Notes under the pieces: generated by a model | The model's input: only the letters and a program-made list of their open reading frames with translations | What the model was told of the DNA's origin: nothing | Databases searched by the model: none | Translations under genes and position numbers: made by a program | Shown here: in pieces, positions 10,068 to 35,454 of the stretch | How the letters are laid out: the number at the start of each line of letters is the position of its first letter | Numbering within the stretch: the first letter of the stretch is position 1 | IMG/VR virus record: IMGVR_UViG_3300032561_000068 | Span: 1-35,756 of that record | Length of the DNA stretch: 35,756 bases | Direction: 5' to 3' (one strand) | Source: a virus

Positions 10068-10436
10068 ATGGAACTAAATACACTTGACCTGAAATGGCAA
10101 AAAGATGCTGCTTGCGCATCTATGTCATCAGAAGATTATGATGCTTTCTATCCAAAACATGGCAAAGTGTTTTTGAAAGAAACCCTAGCTATCTGCAATA
10201 GCTGCCCAGTTAGTTCATCTTGTCTAGATTATTCTCTTAAGTATGAAGAATATGGCTATTGGGCAGGGACCGGCACTACTGAACGTAGAAAGATGCGCAA
10301 AGAACTTGGCATCGAATTGGTTACATTGAACTCAGAGTTCATTAGAGACCAAGTAATTGAAACAATCAAAGAAACCTACCATCCAGTTAAGATTCAAGGG
10401 CGTGGTAGAAAGACTACAGTTAAGGATGAAGTATGA
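10068..10436 (+). CDS. whiB: WhiB-family Fe-S transcriptional regulator
   Basis: The 122-aa protein has the four cluster-binding cysteines of the WhiB family: C16, then C43-x2-C46-x5-C52 (CNSCPVSSSC). The characteristic turn and basic segment GYWAGTGTTERRKMRKELG follow (about residues 63-81). WhiB proteins bind a 4Fe-4S cluster and act with the principal sigma factor; they are restricted to actinobacteria and their phages. This is the strongest host clue in the window. The C-terminal 40 residues are longer than in minimal WhiB proteins and end basic (GRGRKTTVK). The stop overlaps the first glycosyltransferase start (ATGA). It may redirect host transcription or control phage gene timing. No clear Shine-Dalgarno is seen before ATG 10068. 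Confidence 0.95.
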   Translation: MELNTLDLKWQKDAACASMSSEDYDAFYPKHGKVFLKETLAICNSCPVSSSCLDYSLKYEEYGYWAGTGTTERRKMRKELGIELVTLNSEFIRDQVIETIKETYHPVKIQGRGRKTTVKDEV

Positions 10437-21228: not shown

Positions 21229-22511
21229 TGGATATTGAACGCAGCCTTATAAAGCATTTCACCAACCTAGAGAGCTTTCAAAAGATTTGGGACCAAGGTA
21301 TTCGTAGTGAGCACTTTTTCGATGTAGGAATCCGGGAGCTGTTTGACTACAGCCTTGATTACTACGTCCGCAGTGAATTCAAGCAGACGGTGACACAAGA
21401 TTTCCTAGAGACAAAGTTTGATGATTATTTTGATCGTCATGACTGGCCAGAAGAGGAATACCTTGTTGGTGTACTCATCGAAGAAATGGTGACAAAATAC
21501 CGTAAGTCAACTGCTCAGGGCGCATTACTACAAGCAGCTAACGCTTTGGATAAGGACCCTGAAGAAGGCATCTCGATCGCTTTAAGTAACCTTTCAAGAA
21601 TCCAGAGTGACACTAGCACCCGTGCACGTATTGAAATCTATGGCGAAGGTTATGACCGCCGTGTTAACCAATACATGGATGAAGTTGCTAACCCTACAAA
21701 GGATAAGAAAGGCATTTATCTTGGCTGGGATGCTCTTAATGACCACATGTATGGGATCCGCAAGGGTGAGCTTGCCGTGGTCGTTGGTATCCCAAACGTT
21801 GGTAAGTCATGGGTTGGATCAGTAATCGCACTAGAGGCAGCACGACGCAAGAATAAGGTTTATTTCGCATCGCTAGAATTGAGCAAGGAGCTTACGCTCA
21901 TGCGACTCGACTGCCTAGTCAGTGGTGTCCCTTACACTCGTTACGAACGTGGTGAACTTACTCCTAATGAGTTGAAGCGCCTTAAAGATGCTCGGGAAGA
22001 GATCATGGAATTTGGTGAGTACCTTCTTATCGATTCTCCAAGCAAGAAATCTGAGCGTAGTGTCATGGAACTTTATTCCAAGGCTAAGCATTGGGGTGCC
22101 GAACTTATGGTAGGTGACCAACTGTCATGGATCACTACTGATAAGAACTTCGGTTCAAACAGCAACTACCAATCGTTGCAAATGTCTGAAGTAATCACCG
22201 ATGTCGCAGCTACTAATCGTGAGATGGGTATGGCATCCGTATGGCTTGCTCAGTTCAACCGTGAGGCTACGAAGAGTAAGAAGGGTCGTGGTGGTCTAGG
22301 CAATATCGGCCTTAGCTCACAGATCGAACAGATCGTAGACATTGCTCTCGGAATCGGCTGTACTCAGGAGATGAAGCGTCAGGAAGCTCTAGTGCTTGAT
22401 ATCATGAAGAGCCGACGAAGCAACCTCAAGTCTTGGATGATGAGCATGGAGTTGCATGATCGAACCAACTTGAGTATTGTCAGAGAGTACGAAGAAGCTA
22501 ACGCTGAGTAA
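21228..22511 (+). CDS. dnaB: DnaB-type replicative helicase
   Basis: The 427-aa protein has an N-terminal helical domain and a RecA-like motor. Walker A GIPNVGKSW (187-195), YFASLELSKE (about 215-224) with the catalytic Glu, Walker B LMVGDQLSWI (about 289-298) and the C-terminal KSRRSN arginine-finger-type segment (about 402-407) follow the DnaB order. Walker A ends GKS instead of GKT. A linker with RRVNQYMDEV precedes the motor. It unwinds DNA at the fork with the DnaC-type loader and the primase encoded nearby. It is the last gene before a long hairpin. Confidence 0.95.
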   Translation: MDIERSLIKHFTNLESFQKIWDQGIRSEHFFDVGIRELFDYSLDYYVRSEFKQTVTQDFLETKFDDYFDRHDWPEEEYLVGVLIEEMVTKYRKSTAQGALLQAANALDKDPEEGISIALSNLSRIQSDTSTRARIEIYGEGYDRRVNQYMDEVANPTKDKKGIYLGWDALNDHMYGIRKGELAVVVGIPNVGKSWVGSVIALEAARRKNKVYFASLELSKELTLMRLDCLVSGVPYTRYERGELTPNELKRLKDAREEIMEFGEYLLIDSPSKKSERSVMELYSKAKHWGAELMVGDQLSWITTDKNFGSNSNYQSLQMSEVITDVAATNREMGMASVWLAQFNREATKSKKGRGGLGNIGLSSQIEQIVDIALGIGCTQEMKRQEALVLDIMKSRRSNLKSWMMSMELHDRTNLSIVREYEEANAE

Positions 22512-22517
22512 TACACG

Positions 22518-22555
22518 GGTGTGGTGGTCTAGAATTTTGCCTAGTCCACCATACC
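22518..22555 (+). terminator. Terminator-like hairpin after the helicase gene
   Basis: GGTGTGGTGG (22518-22527) pairs with CCACCATACC (22546-22555), ten base pairs with one G-U. A further CTAG/CTAG inner extension leaves a loop of about eight bases. It starts seven bases after the helicase stop. No T-run follows, so a factor-dependent or non-canonical terminator, or an RNA-processing site, is likely. Confidence 0.6.
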
Positions 22556-22614
22556 TGTTGTAAAACCTGCTAGTATGATAAACAGTGCAACAATAGTAGA
22601 GAAAGTTAGTAAGT

Positions 22615-23043
22615 ATGCAAACATTTTTACCCTATGAAAGCTTCAAAGAGTCAGCTGCATCGCTAGACCGTCAGCGTTTGGGGAAACAGCGGGTCGAAAC
22701 TATGCAAGTTATGAAAGCCCTATTCGATCCTTCCTACGGTTGGCAGAACCATCCAGCTGTAAATATGTGGCGTGGTCACGAATGGTACCTTTATCTGTAC
22801 CAGCTTGCTATCTGCAATGAATGGACTTCACGCGGGTATAAAGATACTTGCCTAGAAAAAACCACAGACATCATTCTTGGTAAGCCATTCGGATTGACAA
22901 AGCCTGATTGGTTAGGCAATGAAGAATTCCATCGCAGTCATCGTAGCAATTTGACACGCAAGCTGCCTGAACATTATAATCAATTTTGGGATGAAGCAAA
23001 TGATCTTCCCTACGTCTGGCCAGATGAAATCCTTGTACCATGA
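22615..23043 (+). CDS. Pyrimidine-dimer DNA glycosylase-like protein
   Basis: The 142-aa protein begins MQTFLPYESFKESA and has SLDRQRLGKQRVETMQVMKA (about 16-35) and GWQNHPAVNMWRGHEWYLYL (about 42-61). It continues with EWTSRGYKDTC (about 69-79). This matches the Pyr_excise family, small DNA-repair glycosylases related in name to T4 endonuclease V and often carried by actinobacteria and their phages. It would excise UV photoproducts in phage DNA. A GAGAAAG sequence lies before ATG 22615. It heads a new run after the hairpin and is followed by tiny Cys-rich genes. Confidence 0.82.
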   Translation: MQTFLPYESFKESAASLDRQRLGKQRVETMQVMKALFDPSYGWQNHPAVNMWRGHEWYLYLYQLAICNEWTSRGYKDTCLEKTTDIILGKPFGLTKPDWLGNEEFHRSHRSNLTRKLPEHYNQFWDEANDLPYVWPDEILVP

Positions 23044-23068
23044 ACTGCTTTAAACTCGGAGAGAAACT

Positions 23069-23209
23069 ATGAATTTTAAATGCTTGTTAAAAGGCCATGA
23101 CTACGGTAAGTGGTGTGAAGCTGTTAGGGCAAACGAATATGGTGAAGTCCCAATAATTATTCGCTACTGCAATAATTGTAAATCAAGAGACTGGGTGAAG
23201 AGAGTATGA
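23069..23209 (+). CDS. Small zinc-ribbon-like protein, 46 aa
   Basis: GGAGAG lies just upstream of ATG 23069. The peptide has KCLLKGHDYGKWCEAVRAN, then RYCNNCKSRDWVKRV. Its C..GH..Y and CxxC pairs resemble short zinc-ribbon proteins that phages carry in many copies. It could bind a metal; no partner is apparent. Its stop overlaps the next start (ATGA). Confidence 0.75.
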   Translation: MNFKCLLKGHDYGKWCEAVRANEYGEVPIIIRYCNNCKSRDWVKRV

Positions 23210-23595
23210 ACTGCCGACACTGTAAGGAAACTCTCGTACAAGTAGATCTTGAAAATGGTGATTGGTTCCCCATCCATGAAGGTTGGAGGCAGAATGTCTA
23301 CACTCATCAAGCACCAGCCCGACCACCGAATCGCAGAAACGGAGAAGCCATGACCATCAAAACATTTACCGTGTACCGCAAGGGCGACTTAAGCGAAACC
23401 CACGACGAAAATCAACGACCATTTGGGCCAGACATTGCCGCCTACTGGGGTGTTGTTTTCCCAGACGGAACCTGCGTTCTCCGTTGGAACGGTCCTTCGG
23501 TGTCCCACAGCATTTGGGCCTCGTTCGAGGACGCCATGAAGGTCCACGGACACCCCGAACCTCGCTATGGCACAGAGATTGTGTGGCACTCGTGA
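23206..23595 (+). CDS. Hypothetical protein in a GC-rich patch, 129 aa
   Basis: The N-terminus has a CRHC pair and a Trp/His-rich segment, followed by a proline-rich linker and MTIKTFTVYRKGDLSETHDE. The second half reads GPDIAAYWGVVFPDGTCVLR, then SIWASFEDAMKVHGHPEPRY. That half looks like a self-contained domain with its own possible ATG at 23350 behind GGAGAAG. The base composition rises sharply in GC from about 23280, unlike the first 75 bases, so two genes may have been joined. It starts by ATGA coupling and ends by GTGA coupling. Confidence 0.7.
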   Translation: MNCRHCKETLVQVDLENGDWFPIHEGWRQNVYTHQAPARPPNRRNGEAMTIKTFTVYRKGDLSETHDENQRPFGPDIAAYWGVVFPDGTCVLRWNGPSVSHSIWASFEDAMKVHGHPEPRYGTEIVWHS

Positions 23596-23810
23596 CCCCC
23601 GCCGGACGCCAAGCCCTACGAGAGAAGCACAGCAAGCGTCTTAATGACGGGGGGCGGTGCTTGGCTTGTGGTGGAGCAATGTCACACCCCTGCGACGTAA
23701 TCAAGGTACTAGACGCTTACGAAGAACTCTATGATGATAATAAGAAAACATTAGAAGCATTGACGATAGCGTTGAATTTTGCCCAATCACTAGCAAAGAT
23801 GATCCCATGA
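23592..23810 (+). CDS. Small Cys-containing protein, copy 1 of a tandem paralogue pair, 72 aa
   Basis: The start is GTG 23592, overlapping the previous stop as GTGA. The protein reads PAGRQALREKHSKRLNDG, then RCLACGGAMSHPCDVIKVLD and a helical C-terminus (EALTIALNFAQSLAKMIP). RQALREKH and PCDVIKVLDAYE recur in the next gene. C..C and C may hold a metal. The same frame stays open upstream to 23283, but that part is a shadow of the preceding gene. Function unknown. Confidence 0.72.
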   Translation: MTPAGRQALREKHSKRLNDGGRCLACGGAMSHPCDVIKVLDAYEELYDDNKKTLEALTIALNFAQSLAKMIP

Positions 23811-23946
23811 CTGAAGACGAGCGCCAAGCCCTACGAGAGAAGCACCGAGAAATATTTGATGATTACGGCTCAATCTGCGATTACTGCGATAGGTGCGGTT
23901 GTGGCGAGTATTACGTGGAGTGGCCCTGCGACGTAATCAAGGTACT
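23607..23946 (+). repeat. Direct repeats shared by two tandem small genes
   Basis: A perfect 24-base repeat lies at 23607-23630 and 23822-23845. A perfect 23-base repeat lies at 23688-23710 and 23924-23946, continuing with two mismatches. They encode RQALREKH and PCDVIKV in both genes. Such long identity in otherwise diverged copies suggests recent duplication or gene conversion. Confidence 0.85.
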
Positions 23947-24088
23947 GGATGCTTACGAATCATTGATTGAATACCATTATCATGATGGGGATACTGACCG
24001 AGAGGACCCGTGGTGTAGGACTTGCTGGAAGCCATATCCCTGCGAAAAGGGAAAGGCTTTAGGACACCCTGACGGAGCAGAAGTATGA
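23807..24088 (+). CDS. Small Cys-rich protein, copy 2 of the tandem pair, 93 aa
   Basis: It starts in the ATGA of copy 1. The protein has DERQALREKHREIFDDYG, CDYCDRCGCGEYYVEWPCDV (about 24-43) and IKVLDAYESLIEYHYHDGDT. It ends with WCRTCWKPYPCEKGKALGHP. It has more cysteines than copy 1 (three CxxC-type pairs), which suggests one or two zinc sites. The stop overlaps a further 36-aa gene. No known family is recognised. Confidence 0.75.
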   Translation: MTEDERQALREKHREIFDDYGSICDYCDRCGCGEYYVEWPCDVIKVLDAYESLIEYHYHDGDTDREDPWCRTCWKPYPCEKGKALGHPDGAEV

Positions 24089-24195
24089 CCCCCGAAGAAC
24101 TACCTAATCTTGTTGGTTTTGGTACAGTTTTTGAAGCTTATAAAAAGGTTGAACCAGTCTATATTATCAGTCGTGATGGTTCATTAATGCCCTGA
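24085..24195 (+). CDS. Hypothetical peptide, 36 aa
   Basis: ATG 24085 overlaps the previous stop (ATGA). The peptide starts MTPEELPNLVGFGTVFEAYK and ends YIISRDGSLMP. It has no Cys. The coupling supports expression, but the short length leaves doubt. A strong GGGGGAAGG lies between it and the next gene. Confidence 0.5.
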   Translation: MTPEELPNLVGFGTVFEAYKKVEPVYIISRDGSLMP

Positions 24196-24221
24196 CAATG
24201 GGGGGAAGGTGAGTATTATCT

Positions 24222-24332
24222 ATGAACGCTGAAGAACTTGTAAAAGATGTAAAGACCTGTAAAGGATCACTTTGTATGTTCCATGGGCGTATCTTTGGAT
24301 GTCACCAAGAGGATGAGAATTGTAATGCATGA
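24222..24332 (+). CDS. Small Cys-rich peptide upstream of primase, 36 aa
   Basis: ATG 24222 is preceded by GGGGGAAGGTGAG about ten bases upstream. The peptide reads MNAEELVKDVKTCKGSLCMF, then HGRIFGCHQEDENCNA. Four cysteines and two histidines in 36 residues suggest metal binding. Its stop lies 8 bases inside the primase start (ATGCATGA), so it is likely coupled to primase translation. Confidence 0.6.
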   Translation: MNAEELVKDVKTCKGSLCMFHGRIFGCHQEDENCNA

Positions 24333-25329
24333 TATATTCAACGGCCTCAACGCTTATGTGGTGCTACAAGACATTTTAGGAGTAGGCGAGATCCATGAGA
24401 GTGGCGATGAGCTTATTCACTCGTGCCATCTCCGCATTGGCAACCATAAGAATGGGGATCAAAGCCCCAGTGCTAGCTTAAATAAAGATACTCTATTGTT
24501 TAATTGCTTTACGTGCGGGGGCGGTAGCGTAATTTGGCTAGTTCAGAACTCACTGAATGTAAGCCGTGAAGAAGCCGTTGCAATCCTCATGGGAGAAGCC
24601 AATGGGACTACGATCGTGCCGATTGAGGATTTTATCAAGCGTTTGGAAGGTGTTTTCGAGCAAAACCATCATGAACGTACTGATATCCCCATCTACAGTG
24701 ATACATTGCTTAGACGTTGGGAAGGCCCATGCGACTACCTTACCTCCAGAGGGGTCTCAGAGGCCGTACAACGGGAGATGCGAACTGGTGTAGAGAAGAA
24801 CCGGTCAGAGGTCCAAAAATCCCCACAGGGAGAGCGGATGGTTGCTGTCGATAGGGTTGTAATACCACATTTCATGAAAGGTCAACTAGTTGGATGGGTA
24901 GCACGTAAGCTACAAGATATTCAAGGAATTCCCAAGTACAGGAACTCTAAGGGTTTCCCTCGAGGTGCATGGCTGTTTAATTTGGATAATGCAATCTTGC
25001 ACGATGAGGTGTACGTTGTTGAGAGCCCAATGAGCGTCCTTGTGATGAAAAGTCGGGGTATTGATAACGTCGTAGCAACATTCGGCGCAAAAGTTGATGC
25101 TAGCCAACTCGCTTTGCTACGTAATTTCTCTCGGGTGATTATCTTTATGGATGGTGACGCCCCTGGTCGTATGGCCACGAGTCATCTTATAGAGAGTTTA
25201 GGGAGTTATACGAAATTATCTATAATTGAGACCCCCGATGATGAAGATCCTGCTACGCTAGATGTTATACCCGCTTCAGTAAATTCTTTTGAGTATCAGT
25301 TAAAACACTGCTTGACTTACAGCAGTTAA
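24325..25329 (+). CDS. dnaG: DnaG-type primase
   Basis: The 334-aa protein has a CHC2-type zinc domain with C34, H41, C61 and C64 (HSCHLRIGNH, FNCFTCGGGS). The TOPRIM core follows: VYVVESPMSVLVMKSRG (about 231-247), then FSRVIIFMDGDAPGRMA (about 271-287) with the DGD motif, and finally IETPDDEDPATLD (about 305-317). It makes RNA primers for the DnaB/Pol III-type fork. It is shorter than bacterial DnaG (about 600 aa), lacking the C-terminal helicase-binding domain. I choose ATG 24325, which overlaps the previous stop; the frame is open upstream to 24283. The end contains the next promoter. Confidence 0.93.
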   Translation: MHDIFNGLNAYVVLQDILGVGEIHESGDELIHSCHLRIGNHKNGDQSPSASLNKDTLLFNCFTCGGGSVIWLVQNSLNVSREEAVAILMGEANGTTIVPIEDFIKRLEGVFEQNHHERTDIPIYSDTLLRRWEGPCDYLTSRGVSEAVQREMRTGVEKNRSEVQKSPQGERMVAVDRVVIPHFMKGQLVGWVARKLQDIQGIPKYRNSKGFPRGAWLFNLDNAILHDEVYVVESPMSVLVMKSRGIDNVVATFGAKVDASQLALLRNFSRVIIFMDGDAPGRMATSHLIESLGSYTKLSIIETPDDEDPATLDVIPASVNSFEYQLKHCLTYSS

Positions 25330-25340
25330 GCTGCTACTAT
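25312..25340 (+). promoter_or_regulatory. Promoter with palindromic spacer before the SSB-like gene
   Basis: TTGACT (25312-25317) and TACTAT (25335-25340) are 17 bases apart. The spacer holds the inverted repeat AGCAG-TTAAG-CTGCT (25321-25335), a plausible operator. The predicted start is near 25347, giving a leader of about 65 bases with a palindrome AGCCCTAGGGCT near 25380. The -35 box and part of the spacer lie inside the primase gene end. Confidence 0.62.
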
Positions 25341-25411
25341 TGAAGATGCAGTACAACAACAAAATAATAAAATACATACAGCCCTAGGGCTTTTAATAGA
25401 AAGATAAACTA

Positions 25412-26245
25412 ATGGCGTTGCAAAAAGGCATGGCTGCCGTAAAAGCCAGTATTGAACGTTCACAACAGAGTCAAGGCCCTCGAACGTATGAGCAGACTAA
25501 GTGGTTCTATTGGCGGTCTACAGAGACAAAGGCTCTGCGATTCCTGACGGATTCCAACGACATCTACGTCGTGCCAGTGCATGACAAGGTCCCTACCTTC
25601 GACGGTAAGACGACAGCTTTCGTCTGCCGTAGTGCGTTCGAAGAGTCTTGTGAGCTTTGTGCTCGTGAGAAGGGCACCCCTGGTGCGTACCGTCGTGATG
25701 TTGGTTATGGCATTGCCGTACTTCGTGAAGAAGTTAAGGAAAATGGTAAGACCACTGGCTACCGTGATGTTACTGAAGAGTACGAAGACGTGGTAGACGG
25801 TAAGACTGTCATCAAGAAGCGTCCTTATGTCGGCATCGTCTCACAGGGTATGCGAAACTTCTGGAATCAGATTGCTGTTATCTCCGAGAAGTATGGGTCA
25901 CTTCGTGATCGTGAAATCGAGATTATGCGACAAGGTGCTGGTACTGACACCACGTACATGGCATTCGCCCAACCTGAGAAGGAAATCGCCAACATGGACA
26001 GCCGTTACGAGAAGTTTGTACCAGACCTTGAGGCCTACCTCAAGCGTATTGGTTCAGCCGAGTACTACGACGCGAAGATCCGTGGTATTGTTAAGGATAA
26101 GATGGATAAGAAGCCATCTAGCTCCAGCAATTACTCCGCACCAGCAATGGCTGTTGAAGAAGAGTACGCAGAGGATGACTACGTATCCATTGAGGAAGAA
26201 ACCACCGCAGAGCGTTTGCAGCGTAAGCTAGCAGCTCAGGCATAA
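25412..26245 (+). CDS. Probable single-stranded DNA-binding protein
   Basis: The 277-aa protein has RTYEQTKWFYWRSTETKALR (about 24-43), then FLTDSNDIYVVPVHDKVPTF and FVCRSAFEESCELCAREKG (70-88), a Cys-rich zinc site. It ends in an acidic stretch (AVEEEYAEDDYVSIEEETTA, about 246-265) before a basic tail. A zinc site in the core and an acidic C-terminus are features of T4 gp32-like proteins. Placement directly after primase, with a dedicated promoter and high-expression-like codon choice (GGT, CGT, AAG), supports a stoichiometric SSB. The family is inferred. Confidence 0.65.
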   Translation: MALQKGMAAVKASIERSQQSQGPRTYEQTKWFYWRSTETKALRFLTDSNDIYVVPVHDKVPTFDGKTTAFVCRSAFEESCELCAREKGTPGAYRRDVGYGIAVLREEVKENGKTTGYRDVTEEYEDVVDGKTVIKKRPYVGIVSQGMRNFWNQIAVISEKYGSLRDREIEIMRQGAGTDTTYMAFAQPEKEIANMDSRYEKFVPDLEAYLKRIGSAEYYDAKIRGIVKDKMDKKPSSSSNYSAPAMAVEEEYAEDDYVSIEEETTAERLQRKLAAQA

Positions 26246-26247
26246 CG

Positions 26248-26325
26248 TTTGCTTCCACAAGCAAAACCCAGCTAGTATGCCCAGAGTGCACACCATAAGC
26301 GATCGTTGCGCTCTGGGTATGCTAG
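26248..26325 (+). promoter_or_regulatory. Long hairpin leader before groES
   Basis: A TTTGCTT/AAGCAAA hairpin (26248-26265, loop CCAC) is followed by a much larger one. Bases 26272-26290 pair with 26307-26325 over 19 uninterrupted positions, three of them G-U, with a 16-base loop. The arms read CTAGTATGCCCAGAG and CTCTGGGTATGCTAG at the base. No T-run follows, and the groES ribosome-binding site (AAAAGGA, 26336-26342) is free. It may stop or stabilise the SSB mRNA, or control groES. Confidence 0.7.
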
Positions 26326-26348
26326 TTACCAAAACAAAAGGAATGAAT

Positions 26349-26639
26349 ATGTCGTTTACTGTACTAGAAGATAAAGTAGTAATTAAGATTGCACAGGTAG
26401 AAGAAACCACTGAGAGTGGCCTTTACATCCCTGATTCAGCTGCTGCCATGCCAGAAACTGGTGTTGTGGTTGCCGTAGGTCCTGGTAGAGTTACCAGTAA
26501 TGGCACCCTGCTGCCTACTGGCATTAGTGTTGGTGATACAGTAGTATTTAGCAAGCGTTCTGCGCAGAAGATTGTGATCGAGGATGAAGACTATCTTGTC
26601 TTCCTTTCTGACCACATTCTTGCTATTGTAGAAAACTAG
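26349..26639 (+). CDS. groES: GroES-like co-chaperonin
   Basis: The protein is 96 aa, the usual GroES length. It reads MSFTVLEDKVVIKIAQVEET, then GLYIPDSAAAMPETGVVVAV, GPGRV, and GDTVVFSKRSAQKIVIEDED, finishing YLVFLSDHILAIVEN. The mobile loop (about 16-32), the 'G.VvavG.Gr' strand and the 'ED.yLv....DILAI' end are family marks. I choose ATG 26349 because AAAAGGA is six bases upstream; the frame is open from ATG 26277, but that lies inside the hairpin. No GroEL is in the window, so it probably works with the host chaperonin in capsid assembly, as T4 gp31 does. Confidence 0.9.
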   Translation: MSFTVLEDKVVIKIAQVEETTESGLYIPDSAAAMPETGVVVAVGPGRVTSNGTLLPTGISVGDTVVFSKRSAQKIVIEDEDYLVFLSDHILAIVEN

Positions 26640-26653
26640 TTTGCATTAAGTTT

Positions 26654-26714
26654 CGGGTCCTGGTATCCCCTTCCAACGCCCGTGAAGTAGCTGAAGTCTA
26701 GGATAGGCTGCTTC
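26654..26714 (+). other. Structured leader between groES and the polymerase gene
   Basis: In the 100-base gap, CGGGT (26654-26658) can pair with GCCCG (26678-26682), and GAAGTAGC (26684-26691) pairs with GCTGCTTC (26707-26714) with one G-U. No intrinsic T-run or clear -10/-35 pair was found. AAGG lies seven bases before ATG 26740. It may be a leader structure of the polymerase message. Confidence 0.4.
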
Positions 26715-26739
26715 CTCCTCCATATAGTAAGGTTGAATC

Positions 26740-28143
26740 ATGACAGATAAATTAGTCGCTTTACACGTTCATTCAGAGCACAGTTGCCTCGATGGTCTCG
26801 CAACAATCGATGATATTGTTAACCGTGTAGTAGACCTTGGGCAGAGTGCCGTAGCTATTACCGATCACGGTGAATGCAGTGGCCACCTACAGCTCCAGCA
26901 TGCAGCTGATAAGGCTGGTATCAAGCCCATCTATGGCATGGAAGGTTACTTCACCGAGAATCGCCATGAGAAAGCTGGCAAGAAGGGCGAGAACTACGAC
27001 CACATGACAATCCTGGCAATGAATTCCAAAGGCCTAGAGAACTTGTGGTCACTTTCCAGCCTTGCTTATATCGAAGGTAGCTACTACGGCAACCCACGCT
27101 TCGACTGGGAACTACTGGAAAAGTACAATGAAGGGCTTATCATCACTGGTGGTTGCATGGGTGGTTGCATCGGTAAGCACCTTAAAGATGAAGGTAATTA
27201 TTCAAAGGCTGTAGAGCGTATCGGTCGATACCAAGCGATCTTTGGTGAACGATTCCACCTAGAGCTGCACACGTATCTTGACCCAGAGAGCAACGAATGG
27301 AACTTGCGCGTTGCAGAAGCTGCTCTTGACTACAGCGTTCCTCTGATTACCGTAGCAGACTCTCACTACGCTAAGCCCGACCAGTGGTATGCGCATGAAC
27401 TCATGACAGCTATCCAGATGGGCAAGACCATCAATGACCCATCACGGTTCAGCTATGGTTCTAATCAGTTGTGCCTCTTCTCAGAGGAAGAGACTCGTAG
27501 CCGTTTAAGCTATCTACCCGATTCGATTGTTGACGGAGCTATCAAACGTACTGGTGAGATTGCTGATATGTGCGATGCTCGGGTACCAGGCTCACGTAAG
27601 ATGCCTGTATTCTACAATACTGCCAAGATGGACGAACGTAAGATGCGTGAGACTGCCGAAGAAGGCTTCGCCCGTAAGATCGTTGGGCATACCGCTGAAG
27701 ATATGATTCAGGTATATCGAGACCGCCTAGAATACGAGATCGAAATCGTTACCACTCGTGGATTCCCAGGCTACTTCTTGACCGTACAAGACCTCATCAA
27801 TTGGAGTAAGAGTGAAGGATTCCTTGTAGGACCTAGCCGTGGATGTTTTTTACCTGGATCTTATGTAGGACAGTGTAATGGAGAACATAAGTTAATAGAG
27901 TTAATAGAGAAAGGTGACAAGGTAACAAATTACTTTGAAGGTGAAAGTACGGTTATTAATACATTTGTTTATGAAATCGATGAAGATATAATTTCATTAG
28001 AATTCGAAGACGGTGCGATAATAAAATGTACGCAAGATCATAAGTTCTTGACTCAAAGAGGTTGGGTGCCTGCCATCGAATTAACGCTAGATGACGAGGT
28101 AATAGAACATTATGCAAGTTTACAAGACGACGAACAAAATTAA
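26740..28143 (+). CDS. dnaE: DNA polymerase III alpha, N-extein half fused to N-intein
   Basis: Residues 1-368 are the PHP and early polymerase part of a DnaE-type alpha subunit. LHVHSEHSCLDG (8-19) has the HxH PHP motif, AITDHGECSG follows near 39, VADSHYAKP near 205, and the half ends at GFLVGPSRG. The next 99 residues are an N-intein: C369 at the splice point (CFLPGSYVGQC), block A, and block B with TQDH (KCTQDHKFLTQRGW, about 429-442). The frame stops at 28141 just after the intein domain. It therefore cannot give a full polymerase alone and must splice with the product of 29022-31319. The last 32 bases overlap the endonuclease gene. Confidence 0.93.
   Translation: MTDKLVALHVHSEHSCLDGLATIDDIVNRVVDLGQSAVAITDHGECSGHLQLQHAADKAGIKPIYGMEGYFTENRHEKAGKKGENYDHMTILAMNSKGLENLWSLSSLAYIEGSYYGNPRFDWELLEKYNEGLIITGGCMGGCIGKHLKDEGNYSKAVERIGRYQAIFGERFHLELHTYLDPESNEWNLRVAEAALDYSVPLITVADSHYAKPDQWYAHELMTAIQMGKTINDPSRFSYGSNQLCLFSEEETRSRLSYLPDSIVDGAIKRTGEIADMCDARVPGSRKMPVFYNTAKMDERKMRETAEEGFARKIVGHTAEDMIQVYRDRLEYEIEIVTTRGFPGYFLTVQDLINWSKSEGFLVGPSRGCFLPGSYVGQCNGEHKLIELIEKGDKVTNYFEGESTVINTFVYEIDEDIISLEFEDGAIIKCTQDHKFLTQRGWVPAIELTLDDEVIEHYASLQDDEQN
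27844..28140 (+). other. Split intein, N-terminal fragment (99 aa)
   Basis: It begins with Cys1 directly after the GPSRG extein end. Block A (CFLPGSYV) and block B (TQDH with conserved Thr and His) are present. Its 99-residue length is typical of natural N-inteins. No endonuclease domain is fused. Codons are more A/T-rich than in the extein around it. Confidence 0.9.
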
Positions 28144-29047
28144 CGGGAAATTTTATATAGGGCAAGATACACACGATGATCCAAACTATTATGGGTCAGG
28201 GGTTGCCATCGTGAATGCTATAAAATTTTATGGAAAACTTAATTTTTTTAAAGAAGTACTCCAAGTTTGTAATACTATAGATGAACTCAATCAAGCAGAG
28301 ATAGAATGGATTAGCAAACTAGATGCTAACAACAGGAAAATAGCTTACAATATACAACCAGGTGGTAACCAAAAAGATTCGTATACAAATAACCCTAATA
28401 GAGAAGAGATTCTTAGAAAGTTAATAGAATCTAATGCAAGAGTTAATAATGATCCCGTGCTATCTAAAGCCAAACAAGATAAAACCACCGAAACAAAGAT
28501 GAAGAATGGTACTCATCCTTCTTTGCCTGGAATGAAAAAAAAGTATAGTGAAGCTAATAAGGGTAGAGTATTTACAGAAGATACTTGTAAGAAAATTAGT
28601 GAAGCTAATAAAGGCAAAGCAAAGACTGAAGAACATAAAAAAAAGTTATCTTTAGCTAAAAAGGGGAAGCCTTCATCCAACAAAGGTAAGAAAATGAGTA
28701 AAGAAGGCATAGATAATATCAAATCGTCATGGACTGACAATCGTAGAGTTAAACATTCACAAATATTTTCTGGTAGGATTGTTTCGGAAGAAACTAAGAA
28801 AAAAATATCTGAATCTAAAATTGGGAAACCTGGCACACCGCATACGGAGGATTCTAAGAAGAAAATCTCTGAAGCCAATAAAGGGAAAATATTCTCAGAA
28901 GAATCACGAAAGAAAATGTCAGAAAGCAGTAGGGGACAAACTGCATGGAATAAAGGTATCCCATGCACAGAAGAAACAAAAGAAAAGATTCGTCAAAGTA
29001 TTTTGAGTAAGAGAGAGAAAAATGAAGCTAAAATCAAAGACGATTGA
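28112..29047 (+). CDS. Free-standing GIY-YIG homing endonuclease with NUMOD3 repeats
   Basis: The 311-aa protein opens with MQVYKTTNKINGKFYIGQDT, the 'Y......GK.YIG' catalytic core of GIY-YIG nucleases. NQAEIEWISKLDANN near residue 68 holds the catalytic Glu. From about 130 it has repeated NUMOD3 DNA-binding motifs such as SEANKGRVFTEDTCKKISEA, KGKAKTEEHKKKLS, SEETKKKISESKIGKP and TEETKEKIRQSI. The C-terminus is very basic. It lies between the two polymerase halves, overlapping the N-intein end by 32 bases and the C-intein start by 26, each in a different frame. The DNA is clearly more A-rich than the exteins. It probably spreads the intein-bearing polymerase locus. Confidence 0.92.
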   Translation: MQVYKTTNKINGKFYIGQDTHDDPNYYGSGVAIVNAIKFYGKLNFFKEVLQVCNTIDELNQAEIEWISKLDANNRKIAYNIQPGGNQKDSYTNNPNREEILRKLIESNARVNNDPVLSKAKQDKTTETKMKNGTHPSLPGMKKKYSEANKGRVFTEDTCKKISEANKGKAKTEEHKKKLSLAKKGKPSSNKGKKMSKEGIDNIKSSWTDNRRVKHSQIFSGRIVSEETKKKISESKIGKPGTPHTEDSKKKISEANKGKIFSEESRKKMSESSRGQTAWNKGIPCTEETKEKIRQSILSKREKNEAKIKDD

Positions 29048-29129
29048 GCACTATGTAGGCCCAGTCTATGATATTGGTGTATCGTCACAAGATCATAGTT
29101 ATATTATTGGGAATAAAGTTGTCCACAAC
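29022..29129 (+). other. Split intein, C-terminal fragment (36 aa)
   Basis: Thirty-six residues from a new Met to the terminal Asn include block F (YDIGVSSQDHSYIIGN) and block G (VVHN|S). The penultimate His, terminal Asn and +1 Ser required for splicing are all present. The length matches natural C-inteins (about 35-40 aa). Confidence 0.9.
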
Positions 29130-31319
29130 TCAGCTGGTGGTTCATTGCTGTCATACGTAATGGATATTACTGAGGTAGACCCTATCCCATCCGGCCTTAT
29201 CTTCGAACGGTTCCTTAACCCTGAGCGCGTAAGTATGCCAGATATTGACATCGACATGCCAAAGCTAGAACGTGGTATGGTACGCGTTTACCTCGAAAAG
29301 AAGTATGGCCGTTATAACATTGCTTCGATTGGCACATCGAACACCTTAGGGCCAAAGCAGTCAATCAAGGATGTTTGCCGTGGTTTAGGTATCAACAAGG
29401 AAGACACTCAAGAGATGTGTGACATCATTGAGGATGACTGGAACCTTAAGAACCGTGGTGCCAGCTGGGCAGATGTTATGCATCAGTATTCTAAGGATTA
29501 TTCGCCGTGGATGGTAAAGTATCCTAAGCTATTCGATAATCTTCCTGAGTTTGTCAATCACATTCGTCACACCAGTGCTCACGCTGCAGGTATCGTAATC
29601 AGCAAAGATACACTCATTGGTGCTATGCCATTGCGCTACAGTCCTAGCCAAGATGATATCCGCACACAATTCGATATGAACGGTGTAGACGAGCTTGGGT
29701 TCGTCAAGATCGACTTGCTCGGACTCCGCACACTTAGCACACTTATGGCTGCATTAGATCTAATCAAGGAGAGCAACGATGGCACCCTACCTTTCCGTCA
29801 TTTCTATGAATGGAACTACGACTGGGACACCTATTACAACGATAGTGCTGTCTGGGACTCCATCTGCACCGGTAACAATATTGGGTTATTCCAAATCGAG
29901 ACAGGTCCCCTTAGAAGTCTGGTTAAGCGATTCCAACCAAGAAGCATAGAAGACCTCTGCACCATGATTGCCATCTACCGCCCAGGTATTACTCGGTCAG
30001 TAGACTCTGAGACTGGACTTAATCTTCTCGAGATGTACATGCAGAAGCGTGAGGGCAAGCGTAACGTAACGTATAAGCACCCTAAGCTACGCGACATCCT
30101 CGGTGTATCCTACGGTAGTTTCGTTTATCAGGAACAGATCATGGAAACATGTGTAGCGCTAGCTGGCTATACCATTGTTGAGACTGACCGTGTTCGTAAG
30201 GCAGTGGCCAAGTCTAACTATGAGGACATGAAGGACGAAGCTGAGATCTTTGTTCAGAAGTGTATCGACAATGGAATCGATAAAAAGACTGCAGAATCTA
30301 TTTTTGATGATATGCGTGCCTTTGGTATGTATGGTTTCAACAAAAGTCACGGTTATGGTTATTCAATGCTCTCCTACTGGACTGCATGGGTGAAGCATCA
30401 TTACCCGCAGGAGTTCATGACTGCATTGTTCCGTACTAATCCCAACGATAGTGTTATTTACCAGCGTGAATCTCGCCGTATGGGTATTGAGGTCCTTGGT
30501 CCAGACATTAACGAGAGCGGTGACAACTTCACACTCACTAGCGATGGGAATATCCGTTATGGTCTAAGCAAGGTTAAGCACGTTGCAAACGCTGCAGCTG
30601 AGATCAATAAGTTTGGCCCATTCGCTAGTATGGAAGACTTCTTGAACCGTGTGCCGACAAAGCGCATTAACAAGCGTGTTATTGTATCTATGATTAAATG
30701 TGGTGTCTTCGATAGTTTATGCGGTGACCCAAAAACTGCTTTGTACGAGTATTACAAGACCCGTAAGGAATATAAAAAATATGTTGATAATAATTGCGAT
30801 GCTGTTTGTATTTATTGTGCTGGACGTGACAATTATTTCGATTGTCTTTCAATCAACGTTGAAGCGATTGATGCGCGTGGTGCTAACGAACAGGACCTTT
30901 TGGGTACTATGGTTAGTATTGATCCTCTTGCTGATTACATCGAAGTAATTGAAGAAGAACACAATTTCCCCGGAGAGAAGCACATGTTCCAAGGTGAGAA
31001 AGCAATGCTCGGTGGTATCGTAACCATGATCAAACCATTGGTAACAAAGAAGGGCAAGCACCCAGGATCCGAAATGTGCCAACTATGGGTGGAACTACCG
31101 ATCTCTAGCCTTGAAGACGATATGCTTGAAGAAGAAGAAGAATTATCGCAGAGAGATGAGACAGTACAGATCGTCGCATTCCCAGAAGCTTATAAAAGGG
31201 TGAAGAATGAGCTTGAAGTTGGTACACCTGTTCTGGTCCAAGTTGAGAAAATGCGTGATGGCTTAAGCTTAAGAAGTGTATTCCGACTTGACAAACTTAA
31301 AACCGATGCAGTAATATAA
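29022..31319 (+). CDS. dnaE: C-intein fused to DNA polymerase III alpha, C-extein half
   Basis: The first 36 residues are a C-intein: VGPVYDIGVSSQDHSYIIGN (block F, about 12-31) and VVHN (33-36), with Ser37 as the first extein residue. SAGGSLLSYVMDIT follows, completing the split 'GPxRGSAaGSL' motif. PDIDIDMP (73-80) gives catalytic aspartates, FVKIDLLGLRTLS (about 227-239) the third, and FGMYGFNKSHGYGYS is intact. The C-terminus has an OB-like domain (GGIVTMIKPLVTKKGKHPG) and an acidic loop. AGAGAG lies upstream of ATG 29022. After splicing the exteins total about 1097 aa, a normal DnaE length. It provides the replicative polymerase. Confidence 0.93.
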   Translation: MKLKSKTIEHYVGPVYDIGVSSQDHSYIIGNKVVHNSAGGSLLSYVMDITEVDPIPSGLIFERFLNPERVSMPDIDIDMPKLERGMVRVYLEKKYGRYNIASIGTSNTLGPKQSIKDVCRGLGINKEDTQEMCDIIEDDWNLKNRGASWADVMHQYSKDYSPWMVKYPKLFDNLPEFVNHIRHTSAHAAGIVISKDTLIGAMPLRYSPSQDDIRTQFDMNGVDELGFVKIDLLGLRTLSTLMAALDLIKESNDGTLPFRHFYEWNYDWDTYYNDSAVWDSICTGNNIGLFQIETGPLRSLVKRFQPRSIEDLCTMIAIYRPGITRSVDSETGLNLLEMYMQKREGKRNVTYKHPKLRDILGVSYGSFVYQEQIMETCVALAGYTIVETDRVRKAVAKSNYEDMKDEAEIFVQKCIDNGIDKKTAESIFDDMRAFGMYGFNKSHGYGYSMLSYWTAWVKHHYPQEFMTALFRTNPNDSVIYQRESRRMGIEVLGPDINESGDNFTLTSDGNIRYGLSKVKHVANAAAEINKFGPFASMEDFLNRVPTKRINKRVIVSMIKCGVFDSLCGDPKTALYEYYKTRKEYKKYVDNNCDAVCIYCAGRDNYFDCLSINVEAIDARGANEQDLLGTMVSIDPLADYIEVIEEEHNFPGEKHMFQGEKAMLGGIVTMIKPLVTKKGKHPGSEMCQLWVELPISSLEDDMLEEEEELSQRDETVQIVAFPEAYKRVKNELEVGTPVLVQVEKMRDGLSLRSVFRLDKLKTDAVI

Positions 31320-31342
31320 TTACAGTTAAGAAAGGGAGCTCA

Positions 31343-31486
31343 ATGGCTCGTACAGCATCAAAAATGAAAAGATGGCGTTGTCCAAAATGCAGCGAAGAGA
31401 TCCAAGCAATTGGTAGCGCAGTAGCTCACCGTTGCACCATGAACAAGAACCTGACCACTATGTGGGAACTAGTAGAGGAATTGTGA
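31343..31486 (+). CDS. Small zinc-finger-like protein, 47 aa
   Basis: AAAGGGAGCTCA precedes ATG 31343, an excellent ribosome site. The peptide has KRWRCPKCSEEIQAIGSAVA, then HRCTMNKNLTTMWELVEEL. CPKC with a following H-x-C is a zinc-ribbon pattern seen in many phage proteins. It is the first gene after the polymerase, and its stop is one base from the next ATG (TGATG). Confidence 0.75.
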   Translation: MARTASKMKRWRCPKCSEEIQAIGSAVAHRCTMNKNLTTMWELVEEL

Positions 31487-31791: not shown

Positions 31792-31988
31792 TGCACTTGT
31801 TTCTATTCCTAACTATATTAGTAGTAGCAACAGCATATGTAAATTTTCTCTATAAGTTTTGGGATGGTCGCACCATTGACGGTATGGACTTAGAAGGCAT
31901 CTATACCTGGAGCGCAGTGCTCTTTTCATTTATACTTAGTATTATTCTCATAGAAGTGATGGTGGGTGTATGGCAACTGACTCAGTAG
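31788..31988 (+). CDS. Small two-helix membrane protein, 66 aa
   Basis: ATG 31788 overlaps the previous stop (ATGATG). HLFLFLTILVVATAYVNFLY (3-22) and WSAVLFSFILSIILIEVMVG (about 41-60) are two transmembrane segments joined by a polar loop, KFWDGRTIDGMD. Size and two-helix layout would fit a holin or a membrane anchor, but it is far from the lysin and no charge pattern decides. The 3' end overlaps the next gene by 19 bases. Confidence 0.68.
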   Translation: MMHLFLFLTILVVATAYVNFLYKFWDGRTIDGMDLEGIYTWSAVLFSFILSIILIEVMVGVWQLTQ

Positions 31989-34859: not shown

Positions 34860-35039
34860 ATGGAATACACCAATGCCTACCTCGTGAATAGGGTAACCAC
34901 ACTCGAGGCGATGCTAAACCGTGTCAAAGAAGTTATTGAACTCGTTGGAGTGGATGACGATATCAAAATTCCTATGATTAAGGGTACATTAAACCCTTAT
35001 GGGGTTACTAAGCAAGTGCCAAACAAAAATGAAGCGTAA
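34860..35039 (+). CDS. Hypothetical protein, 59 aa
   Basis: I choose ATG 34860 because GGAGG lies nine bases upstream; the frame is open from 34776 but that part is inside the preceding gene. The peptide is helical (AYLVNRVTTLEAMLNRVKEV, then IELVGVDDDIKIPMIKG) and ends NPYGVTKQVPNKNEA. It could form a coiled coil. It overlaps the HNH gene by 11 bases. No family recognised. Confidence 0.66.
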   Translation: MEYTNAYLVNRVTTLEAMLNRVKEVIELVGVDDDIKIPMIKGTLNPYGVTKQVPNKNEA

Positions 35040-35454
35040 CCTATGGAGAAAAGTAGAACGTGAAGGCGATTGCTGGGTCTGGACTGGTAGTACAGCTAAT
35101 CGAGGGTACGGTAGCATCCACCACGATGGTAGGAACGGCTATCTTCCTCACAGACTAGCCTATGAGCTCCTGGTTGGGCCGATACCTGAAGGTTTAGTAC
35201 TTGACCACATGTGCCAGAATAGACGCTGTGTGAACCCTAAACATTTGGATCCTGTGACAAACCGTGTTAATATCTTACGTGGTAAGAGTGTTGCAGCCTT
35301 GAACTTCATCAAGACTGAATGCGTCAATGGCCATCCATTCGATCAGAAGAATACAAAAATTAGGAAGGATAAGACAAGATCATGCAGACAATGCGAAAAA
35401 GATCGTCTAAAAAAGTTCAGAGAAAATCAAAAGCTACAAAAGCACCAGAGGTAA
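35029..35454 (+). CDS. HNH homing-type endonuclease
   Basis: The 141-aa protein has CWVWTGSTANRGYGSIHHDG (about 16-35), PHRLAYELLVGPIPEGLVLD (about 41-60) and HMCQNRRCVNPKHLDPVTNR (61-80). This is the HNH_3-type layout in which H and CxxxxC hold the fold and VNPxHL supplies the third His. The second part, ECVNGHPFDQKNTKIRKDKT then CRQCEKDR, is a second zinc-finger-like DNA-binding segment. Such genes are often free-standing mobile endonucleases. I choose ATG 35029 over the upstream open frame. No good ribosome site is seen; it may be coupled to the overlapping gene. Confidence 0.92.
   Translation: MKRNLWRKVEREGDCWVWTGSTANRGYGSIHHDGRNGYLPHRLAYELLVGPIPEGLVLDHMCQNRRCVNPKHLDPVTNRVNILRGKSVAALNFIKTECVNGHPFDQKNTKIRKDKTRSCRQCEKDRLKKFRENQKLQKHQR

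What the first reader, a model, noticed from the sequence alone, without database searches (positions are those of the whole stretch)
26740..31319. Fractured Pol III alpha gene: trans-splicing split intein with a GIY-YIG endonuclease between the halves
Seen: the DnaE-type polymerase stops after a 99-aa intein fragment beginning Cys and carrying block B (TQDH). A new gene 879 bases later starts with a 36-aa C-intein ending VVHN followed by Ser. Between them is a complete GIY-YIG/NUMOD3 nuclease overlapping both, and the three genes use three different frames. Known: 'fractured genes' with split inteins and separate nucleases occur in metagenomic phage-like sequences (gp41, NrdA/J, IMPDH types). 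Inference: the polymerase is only active after protein trans-splicing, so replication depends on co-expression of two genes. A free nuclease rather than a fused one would keep the split locus mobile. The insertion is at the GPxRG/SAGGS motif, not at the FNKSH site used by cyanobacterial DnaE split inteins, which is intact here.
Basis: partly seen in the sequence, partly recalled or inferred. Interest (0 to 1): 0.9.

Follow-up and report, generated by a model that had tools for sequence, protein, structure and literature searches.

The report
Phage polymerase split by an intein
In this bacterial virus the gene for the DNA-copying enzyme is broken in two by a mobile protein-splicing element that carries its own DNA-cutting gene, so the enzyme must probably be stitched together after both halves are made; the same break recurs in many other viruses.

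Summary
A DnaE-type polymerase gene is interrupted between GPSRG and SAGGS by exactly 1286 nt: a 99-aa N-intein, an overlapping free-standing GIY-YIG/NUMOD3 nuclease and a 36-aa C-intein, in three frames. Two other IMG/VR contigs carry the locus letter for letter although their flanks differ, so it is no error. 24 of 24 relatives examined (16 distinct proteins) are uninterrupted there. Both halves are under purifying selection. Best explanation: a trans-splicing split intein with a homing nuclease between its halves, a 'fractured gene', which is a known kind. New is the context. Three pattern scans gave 69 stretches, 68 recognisably this polymerase, with intein ends at the same site: 47 split, 21 contiguous, 1 undecided. 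Where both halves are visible (39), the middle holds a PD-(D/E)XK-like ORF (17), a nuclease fused to one half (4), none or a remnant (16), or GIY-YIG (2, both this locus). In the intein tree the window groups with two inteins carrying PD-(D/E)XK-like nucleases, so its nuclease was probably exchanged. Trans-splicing and homing are inferred, not shown.

The parts
26740..27843 (+). N-extein of the DnaE-type polymerase: PHP domain and start of the palm domain, ends ...LVGPSRG
   Evidence: Pfam PHP 1.2e-42, DNA_pol3_alpha 7.5e-14; last 250 aa 93.6% identical to empty-site relative L026
27844..28143 (+). N-intein, 99 aa, Cys1, block B TQDH, then stop TAA; net charge -16
   Evidence: TIGR01445 E 1.4e-4, Pfam Intein_splicing 8e-5, both under their cut-offs; 104.2 bits against a profile of other split inteins of this site; charge
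28112..29047 (+). free-standing GIY-YIG/NUMOD3 nuclease, 311 aa, overlaps the N half by 32 nt and the C half by 26 nt
   Evidence: NUMOD3 4.9e-23; TIGR01453 5e-10, under its cut-off; Y4, Y15, G17 invariant and E63 nearly so in an alignment of the window and 21 relatives; model residues 1-80 pLDDT 93-98, top fold matches I-TevI catalytic domain 1MK0/1LN0, prob 1.00, E 2.1e-3
29022..29129 (+). C-intein, 36 aa, ends VVHN; net charge +1
   Evidence: TIGR01443 E 0.47 alone; with the N-intein Pfam Intein_splicing 1.5e-7; 40.6 bits against a profile of other C-inteins of this site; 58.3% identical to those of L145 and L167
29130..31319 (+). C-extein: rest of palm, fingers, HHH; starts SAGGS (Ser+1)
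   Evidence: Pfam DNA_pol3_alpha 1e-52, DNA_pol3_finger 5.2e-36, HHH_6 2e-21
27844..29129 (+). the inserted unit, 1286 nt (not a multiple of 3), G+C 33.9% against 48.6/44.5% of the exteins
   Evidence: comparison with 24 empty sites and composition
30336..30350 (+). FNKSH motif, intact (region of the cyanobacterial DnaE split intein)
   Evidence: sequence and translation

Best explanation
A naturally split class 1 intein occupies the GPxRG|S site in the palm domain of a phage DnaE-type replicative polymerase. The two halves are made as separate proteins. The 99-aa N-intein and 36-aa C-intein associate and splice in trans (Cys1, block B Thr/His, penultimate His, terminal Asn, Ser+1), releasing a contiguous polymerase of about 1097 residues with the junction GPSRG-SAGGS. 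The GIY-YIG/NUMOD3 gene between the halves is a homing endonuclease that cuts intein-less copies of the gene, so that repair copies the whole 1286-nt unit. The unit most likely entered this phage lineage horizontally, and its nuclease was probably exchanged: its closest intein kin carry PD-(D/E)XK-like nucleases. Shown here: anatomy, exact insertion, reality of the frames, empty sites, selection on the exteins, kinship of the intein. Inferred: trans-splicing, homing, transfer, direction of the exchange.
For: Intein signatures in both halves and all class 1 splicing residues. Identical locus in three records with differing flanks. 24 of 24 relatives have an empty site. dN/dS against L026 is 0.037 (N half) and 0.049 (C half); counted with three outgroups, 41 amino-acid and 128 synonymous changes fall on the window branch and 26 and 74 on L026's. 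In 6 contigs of the group no PolA was found and one DnaE-type gene each, in two pieces in the two copies of this locus. Family: 47 split loci at the same site; 16 of the 39 with both halves visible (10 distinct inteins) keep both intein halves though no whole nuclease is left between them, and insert lengths are not held in frame (mod 3 = 6/20/11 of 37). Tree: window + L167 99/85, + L145 99/96. Intein identity to L145/L167 is 52-58% while N-exteins (last <=250 aa) are 21-24% identical; the empty relative L026 has 93.6%.
Against: No biochemical or transcript evidence. The window's Intein_splicing score (31.8 bits) stays under Pfam's gathering cut-off. The C half shows more amino-acid changes on the window branch than on L026's (31 against 13; N half 10 against 13), and 34 changes could not be assigned. 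PolB was not searched for, and the contigs may be incomplete. The identical copies may come from one environment: they show real frames, not long persistence. The family was found with patterns that demand VHN|S, so those residues are partly built in. The 24 residues after the site are as alike (54-63%) as the intein in L145/L167, and loss of the intein in the 24 relatives is not excluded, so transfer is the economical reading, not proof. Inteins of this site are not one clade in the tree: other-site inteins branch among them.
Confidence: 0.85

Rival explanations
1. The halves work without splicing: they associate non-covalently, as reported for phage Aeh1 NrdA and phage 25 gp43A/gp43B, and the intein pieces are inert remains.
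For: Such split phage enzymes exist (PMC2988022, passages).
Against: All splicing residues are kept; both intein halves persist in 16 loci, 10 distinct inteins, with no whole nuclease between them; the break lies inside a conserved motif of the palm domain, where 99 and 36 extra residues would sit near the active site (inference).
Confidence: 0.08
2. One contiguous intein-nuclease protein is made through two ribosomal frameshifts, so splicing is in cis.
For: Overlaps of 32 and 26 nt, and both shifts would be in the same (+1) direction; L145 and L167 show the nuclease fused to one half.
Against: It needs two efficient +1 shifts; the nuclease has its own ATG at the domain start with the strongest ribosome-site pairing of the three genes (-7.3 against -4.7 and -5.2 kcal/mol); relatives with 47-431 nt between N stop and C start have no overlap to shift in.
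Confidence: 0.03
3. The nuclease ORF belongs to a group I intron inside the intein gene, so RNA splicing rejoins the halves.
For: This kind of nuclease is often carried by group I introns (TIGR01453 is named for them).
Against: The only Rfam match at E<=1 in 26700-31400 is a sub-threshold snoRNA (E 0.8), no intron; the nuclease ORF fills the gap with 32- and 26-nt overlaps, leaving little room for a ribozyme core.
Confidence: 0.02
4. Assembly or sequencing errors broke a contiguous gene.
For: Metagenomic source; single-base errors could break frames.
Against: Three records identical over 26740-31319 with differing flanks, and the same architecture in many unrelated contigs.
Confidence: 0.01

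Closest known systems
'Fractured genes' (Dassa et al. 2009, NAR 37:2560; not held; content recalled; seen only in reference lists)
   Same: Enzyme gene broken by a split intein with a free-standing endonuclease between the halves, mainly in phage-like DNA (recalled)
   Different: Nuclease here is GIY-YIG/NUMOD3, not the Vsr-like family recalled for half of their loci; host gene is a phage DnaE-type polymerase at GPxRG|S. Whether their list held this gene could not be checked
Salmonella phage S16 UvsW (gp114, gp114.1, gp115)
   Same: N-intein ORF, overlapping middle ORF, C-intein ORF; S16-type phages give the best E-value (5e-10) among the 40 of 233 records listed for the window's N-intein
   Different: Helicase gene, other middle ORF, other site; outside the 32-row group that holds the window in the tree
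Pseudomonas phage MIJ3 PolB split intein with HNH nuclease (PMC6892783, passages)
   Same: Polymerase split by an intein with a separate nuclease gene
   Different: B-family polymerase, HNH nuclease
Lactococcus phage 949 and Bacillus phage G DnaE-type polymerases
   Same: Intein at the same GxxRG|S site
   Different: Contiguous inteins (376 and 245 aa), not split. Phage P1048 matched too but its site was not read
Cyanobacterial DnaE split intein (Npu/Ssp)
   Same: Same enzyme type; N about 100 and C 36 aa; closest solved structures 2KEQ/4KL5. PMC12707363 (passages) calls this the most common split position
   Different: Different insertion site in the polymerase, no nuclease between halves (recalled)

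Membership tests
fractured gene | conserved enzyme gene broken in two | tested here: met
   one 1097-aa polymerase in the closest relative, two ORFs here
fractured gene | split intein halves exactly at the break | tested here: met
fractured gene | free-standing endonuclease gene between the halves | tested here: met
   28112-29047
fractured gene | halves joined by protein trans-splicing | not testable with these tools
   needs expression or proteomics
class 1 split intein | Cys/Ser1, block B TxxH, HN end, Cys/Ser/Thr+1 | tested here: met
   Cys1, TQDH, VVHN, Ser+1
class 1 split intein | scores above curated profile cut-offs | tested here: inconclusive
   TIGR01445 22.8 of 24.5; TIGR01443 10.8 of 15.6; Intein_splicing 31.8 of 35.8 for both halves together
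GIY-YIG homing endonuclease | GIY/YIG tyrosines and catalytic Glu; I-TevI-like fold | tested here: met
   Y4, Y15, G17 invariant, E63 nearly so; 1MK0/1LN0 top fold matches
GIY-YIG homing endonuclease | cuts the intein-less allele | not testable with these tools
   needs a cleavage assay
cyanobacterial DnaE split intein | insertion next to FNKSH | tested here: not met
   insertion at GPSRG|SAGGS; FNKSH intact
Vsr-like/PD-(D/E)XK fractured-gene nuclease | PDF...ExK-type nuclease in the middle ORF | tested here: not met
   window nuclease is GIY-YIG; the PD-(D/E)XK-like type is in other loci of the family

The most novel reading that the evidence does not exclude
The GPxRG|S site of phage DnaE-type polymerases is a shared homing site. 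Within the 32-row intein group that holds the window, the element exists as small contiguous inteins, with a nuclease inside, with the nuclease fused to either half, with a free nuclease, and split with the nuclease gone; in the window's own branch the nuclease family was exchanged (PD-(D/E)XK-like to GIY-YIG). Once split, genes stay split after the nuclease is lost, so many phages depend on trans-splicing to replicate.
Probability: 0.6. Interest if true: 0.72.

Novelty: new variant of a known kind. Interest (0 to 1): 0.6.

Why it matters
How split inteins arise and why they persist is open. Here one protein site shows many states side by side: empty, contiguous with LAGLIDADG (a separate branch of the tree) or with a PD-(D/E)XK-like nuclease, contiguous without nuclease, nuclease fused to either half, free nuclease, and split with the nuclease gone. 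That makes the order of events testable by trees and by swapping halves. The scans also give 29 distinct split inteins with both halves known (the window's included) as candidates for protein ligation, and they warn that automated annotation may call these polymerases truncated.

Tried and rejected
Group I intron: Rfam search of the region found none. Frame error: rejected by identical copies. Near-identical phage DNA in INPHARED: none. Solved-structure search with the nuclease sequence: no match; the fold search then gave I-TevI. Alignments of Streptomyces and Pectobacterium polymerases that seemed to run into the N-intein: the three genes fetched are annotated as single CDS of 3483 and 3132 nt; I did not look inside them for inteins. 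Co-conversion around the site is at most slight.

GIY-YIG relatives between intein halves: a first regex scan of 72 loci found none with both halves, but a later control showed that this regex finds both halves in only 6 of 37 known split loci, so I dropped it. A profile search, whose N model finds 6 of 6 control loci and whose C model 5 of 6 (4 of 6 if a second, contiguous intein in L052 is not counted), found an N-intein near 5 of the 72 and a C-intein near none. Read by eye, four are near-copies of a terminase gene with a contiguous intein and an HNH/NUMOD3 ORF, and in L130 the GIY-YIG gene lies beside, not inside, a UvsW gene with an N-intein. The C model missed the terminase inteins' ends, so a few cases could still be overlooked.

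Two contiguous inteins (L161, L185) were first given wrong starts and were corrected before the final tree; the first tree, with these errors, placed the window only weakly. My script missed the N half of L176 because of its TPGRG context; I added it by eye, so 39 = 38 + 1. My guess of a group I intron in phage G is not supported (no Rfam match at E<=0.1).

Papers. Searches. No title or abstract start listed was about split inteins at this site of phage DnaE-type polymerases; lists were capped and most subscription papers, and Dassa 2009, are not held. Passages only were seen of PMC10448857, PMC6892783, PMC7765530, PMC12707363, PMC6390638, PMC12350094, PMC12363816, PMC2988022, PMC3653736, PMC2814812 and PMC5874633. 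PMC6390638 reports a bacterial DnaE gene in two reading frames with a 415-aa intein, site not stated in the passages. PMC12363816 reports gut jumbo phage polymerase genes split by endonucleases, with details in a table not read.
Full report
What is there. The window is a 35,756-base IMG/VR virus record. 26740-28143 is the front of a DnaE-type polymerase (PHP domain, start of the palm) followed by a 99-residue N-intein. 28112-29047 is a 311-residue nuclease. 29022-31319 starts with a 36-residue C-intein and continues with the rest of the polymerase. The splicing residues are all present: Cys1, TQDH, VVHN and Ser+1. FNKSH is intact. The overlaps are 32 and 26 nt and the three frames differ. The open frame runs only 5 codons upstream of the C-half ATG and 2 upstream of the nuclease ATG.

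Is it an intein? Alone, the N half scores close to the curated cut-off (TIGR01445, 22.8 of 24.5 bits), while the C half is weak (TIGR01443, E 0.47). Joined, the halves match Pfam Intein_splicing at 1.5e-7, still under the gathering score, and the solved DnaE inteins 2KEQ and 4KL5 at about 3e-6. Profiles built from 27 other split inteins of the same site, without the window, find both halves clearly (104.2 and 40.6 bits).

Is it real? Two other IMG/VR records are identical to the window from 21740 to 31335, then show substitutions from 31336 and lose register near 31965; they also differ from each other. So three records of differing strains agree on both frame breaks. Of the 26 loci found with the N half, two are these copies and 24 are relatives at 51-92% identity. 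All 24 (16 distinct proteins) have an uninterrupted frame through GPxRG|S; one, L031, is cut by its contig end. Against the closest, L026, the window holds exactly 1286 extra nt, at 33.9% G+C against 48.6 and 44.5% for the exteins.

Is the broken gene still working? Compared with L026, dN/dS is 0.037 for the front half and 0.049 for the back half. With three outgroups the window branch shows 41 amino-acid and 128 synonymous changes and the L026 branch 26 and 74; 34 amino-acid changes could not be assigned. In the back half alone the window branch has more amino-acid changes (31 against 13); in the front half it has fewer (10 against 13). How much of the window branch postdates the insertion is unknown. 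In six contigs of the group no PolA was found, and only one DnaE-type polymerase, in two pieces in the two copies of this locus. PolB was not searched for and the contigs may be incomplete.

The nuclease. It has five NUMOD3 stretches, matches the group I intron endonuclease family TIGR01453 below its cut-off, and keeps the two motif tyrosines, the YIG glycine and, nearly always, the catalytic-type glutamate in an alignment with 21 of its 72 relatives. The modelled first 80 residues (pLDDT 93-98) match the I-TevI catalytic domain best (prob 1.00, E 2.1e-3). No intron is detected around it. A profile search of the 72 relatives found no second case of GIY-YIG between intein halves (its limits are given under Tried and rejected).

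The wider family. Three scans of viral contigs for codons of VHN|S(A/V)(G/A)G gave 17, 6 and 46 stretches. 68 of 69 show the polymerase's x-RF motif just downstream; the last, L197, is cut by the end of its stretch. I classed 47 as split (two are the copies of this locus), 21 as contiguous (17 whole, 4 cut at an edge) and 1 as undecided. Many are near-copies: 39 split rows used for the tree, one of them a plasmid, reduce to 30 distinct inteins. The scans demand particular codons and a VHN|S end, so the numbers are a sample, not a census.

In 39 of the 47 split loci the front half is visible (38 by script, L176 added by eye); in the other 8 the stretch begins 308-1160 bases before the site. The middle holds: a separate PD-(D/E)XK-like ORF in 17 (15 distinct inteins; one ORF broken, L210; in L181 the halves are 6.4 kb apart with other genes between); GIY-YIG in 2 (this locus); a nuclease fused to the front half in 1 (L145) or to the back half in 3 (L146/L150 with NUMOD4-HNH, L167 PD-(D/E)XK-like); and nothing or a remnant in 16 (10 distinct inteins, insert 424-824 nt). 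The PD-(D/E)XK label rests on a PDF...ExK motif (15 of the 17 by script, two by eye) and on Pfam matches, run for five nucleases of this type (three of the 17, L145 and the contiguous L156), that stay below cut-off except in L156. Insert lengths modulo 3 are 6, 20 and 11 of 37, so they are not held in frame. Contiguous inteins at the same site include L143 with LAGLIDADG, small ones of 127 and 135 aa (L191, L171), and those of Lactococcus phage 949 and Bacillus phage G.

Kinship. In the intein tree (53 distinct rows) the window pairs with L167 (99/85) and then L145 (99/96). Both have PD-(D/E)XK-like nucleases fused to a polymerase half. The wider group holding the window has 32 rows (28 split, 4 contiguous) at 91/82, not strong. 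Inteins of this site are not one clade: 11 contiguous ones form a separate branch (95/92), and the five inteins from other genes branch among the rest. Intein identity to L145 and L167 is 52-58%, while their N-exteins are 21-24% identical to the window's; the 24 residues after the site are 54-63% alike. The empty relative L026 has a 93.6% identical N-extein. The economical reading is that the intein moved between distant phages and that GIY-YIG took the place of the older nuclease; loss in the relatives is not excluded.

How it most likely works. The intein halves associate and splice in trans, giving a contiguous polymerase; the nuclease promotes copying of the unit into intein-less polymerase genes. 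The strongest indirect evidence for trans-splicing is that 16 loci keep both intein halves with no whole nuclease left between them. The rivals are non-covalent assembly, frameshifted cis-splicing, an intron and an error; each is weaker for the reasons given in its entry.

What is known. 'Fractured genes' are a described kind (Dassa et al. 2009; not held, recalled). A split-intein polymerase with a nuclease is reported for PolB (PMC6892783, passages). Split polymerase genes with endonucleases are noted in gut jumbo phages (PMC12363816, passages). Non-covalent split enzymes are reviewed in PMC2988022 (passages). The searches listed under Tried and rejected showed no paper on this site in phage DnaE-type polymerase, which does not show that none exists. 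I file the locus as a new variant of a known kind.

Noticed in passing
26277-26639: A GroES/Cpn10 gene (Pfam Cpn10, E 3.5e-26) lies directly upstream of the polymerase front half.
   Followed up: partly
10068-10436: WhiB-type regulator (Pfam Whib, E 1.3e-13), which suggests an actinobacterial host (link to host recalled).
   Followed up: partly
21740-31335 against 31336 onward: Three records are identical over this stretch and then diverge, with a loss of register near 31965; a recent sweep or exchange around the polymerase is possible.
   Followed up: no
34999-35454: HNH_3 endonuclease gene (E 1.3e-12), a second possible mobile nuclease.
   Followed up: no
L118 497-3271 with 1161-1895; also L120, L121, L123: A terminase gene with a contiguous intein whose coding sequence also holds, in another frame, a whole HNH/NUMOD3-like nuclease ORF (245 aa; cut at the edge in L123): apparently two proteins from the same DNA (nuclease label by eye).
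   Followed up: partly
L130 4630-6307: A GIY-YIG nuclease gene directly before a UvsW-like gene that ends in an N-intein; the contig ends before the rest is seen.
   Followed up: partly
L157 5570-8505 (reverse complement orientation): A polymerase broken by two split inteins, at GNARG|S and at GFNK|SH.
   Followed up: partly
L181 2331-9154: Intein halves 6.4 kb apart with several other ORFs and a PD-(D/E)XK-like nuclease between them.
   Followed up: no
L206 5118-5702: Besides the nuclease, an ORF with an adenine-methyltransferase-like motif (label recalled, no profile run) lies between the intein halves.
   Followed up: no
L214 (Bacillus phage G) 1428-5409; L166: Phage G has a contiguous intein at the same site and, some 40 codons further, a second break with a GIY-YIG nuclease (gp330, 41% identical to the window's over 129 aa). 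No Rfam intron was found there at E<=0.1, so its nature is open. L166 has a similar break.
   Followed up: partly
L212 (Acinetobacter baumannii plasmid record NZ_CP059543.1): A plasmid-borne DnaE-like gene split in the same manner, one residue further on, with a PD-(D/E)XK-like middle ORF; its back half is also truncated. 23 of 41 matching plasmid records are Acinetobacter; one was read.
   Followed up: partly
L145, L156, L167, L194, L200: Further interruptions shortly after FERF suggest a second insertion site in the same domain.
   Followed up: no
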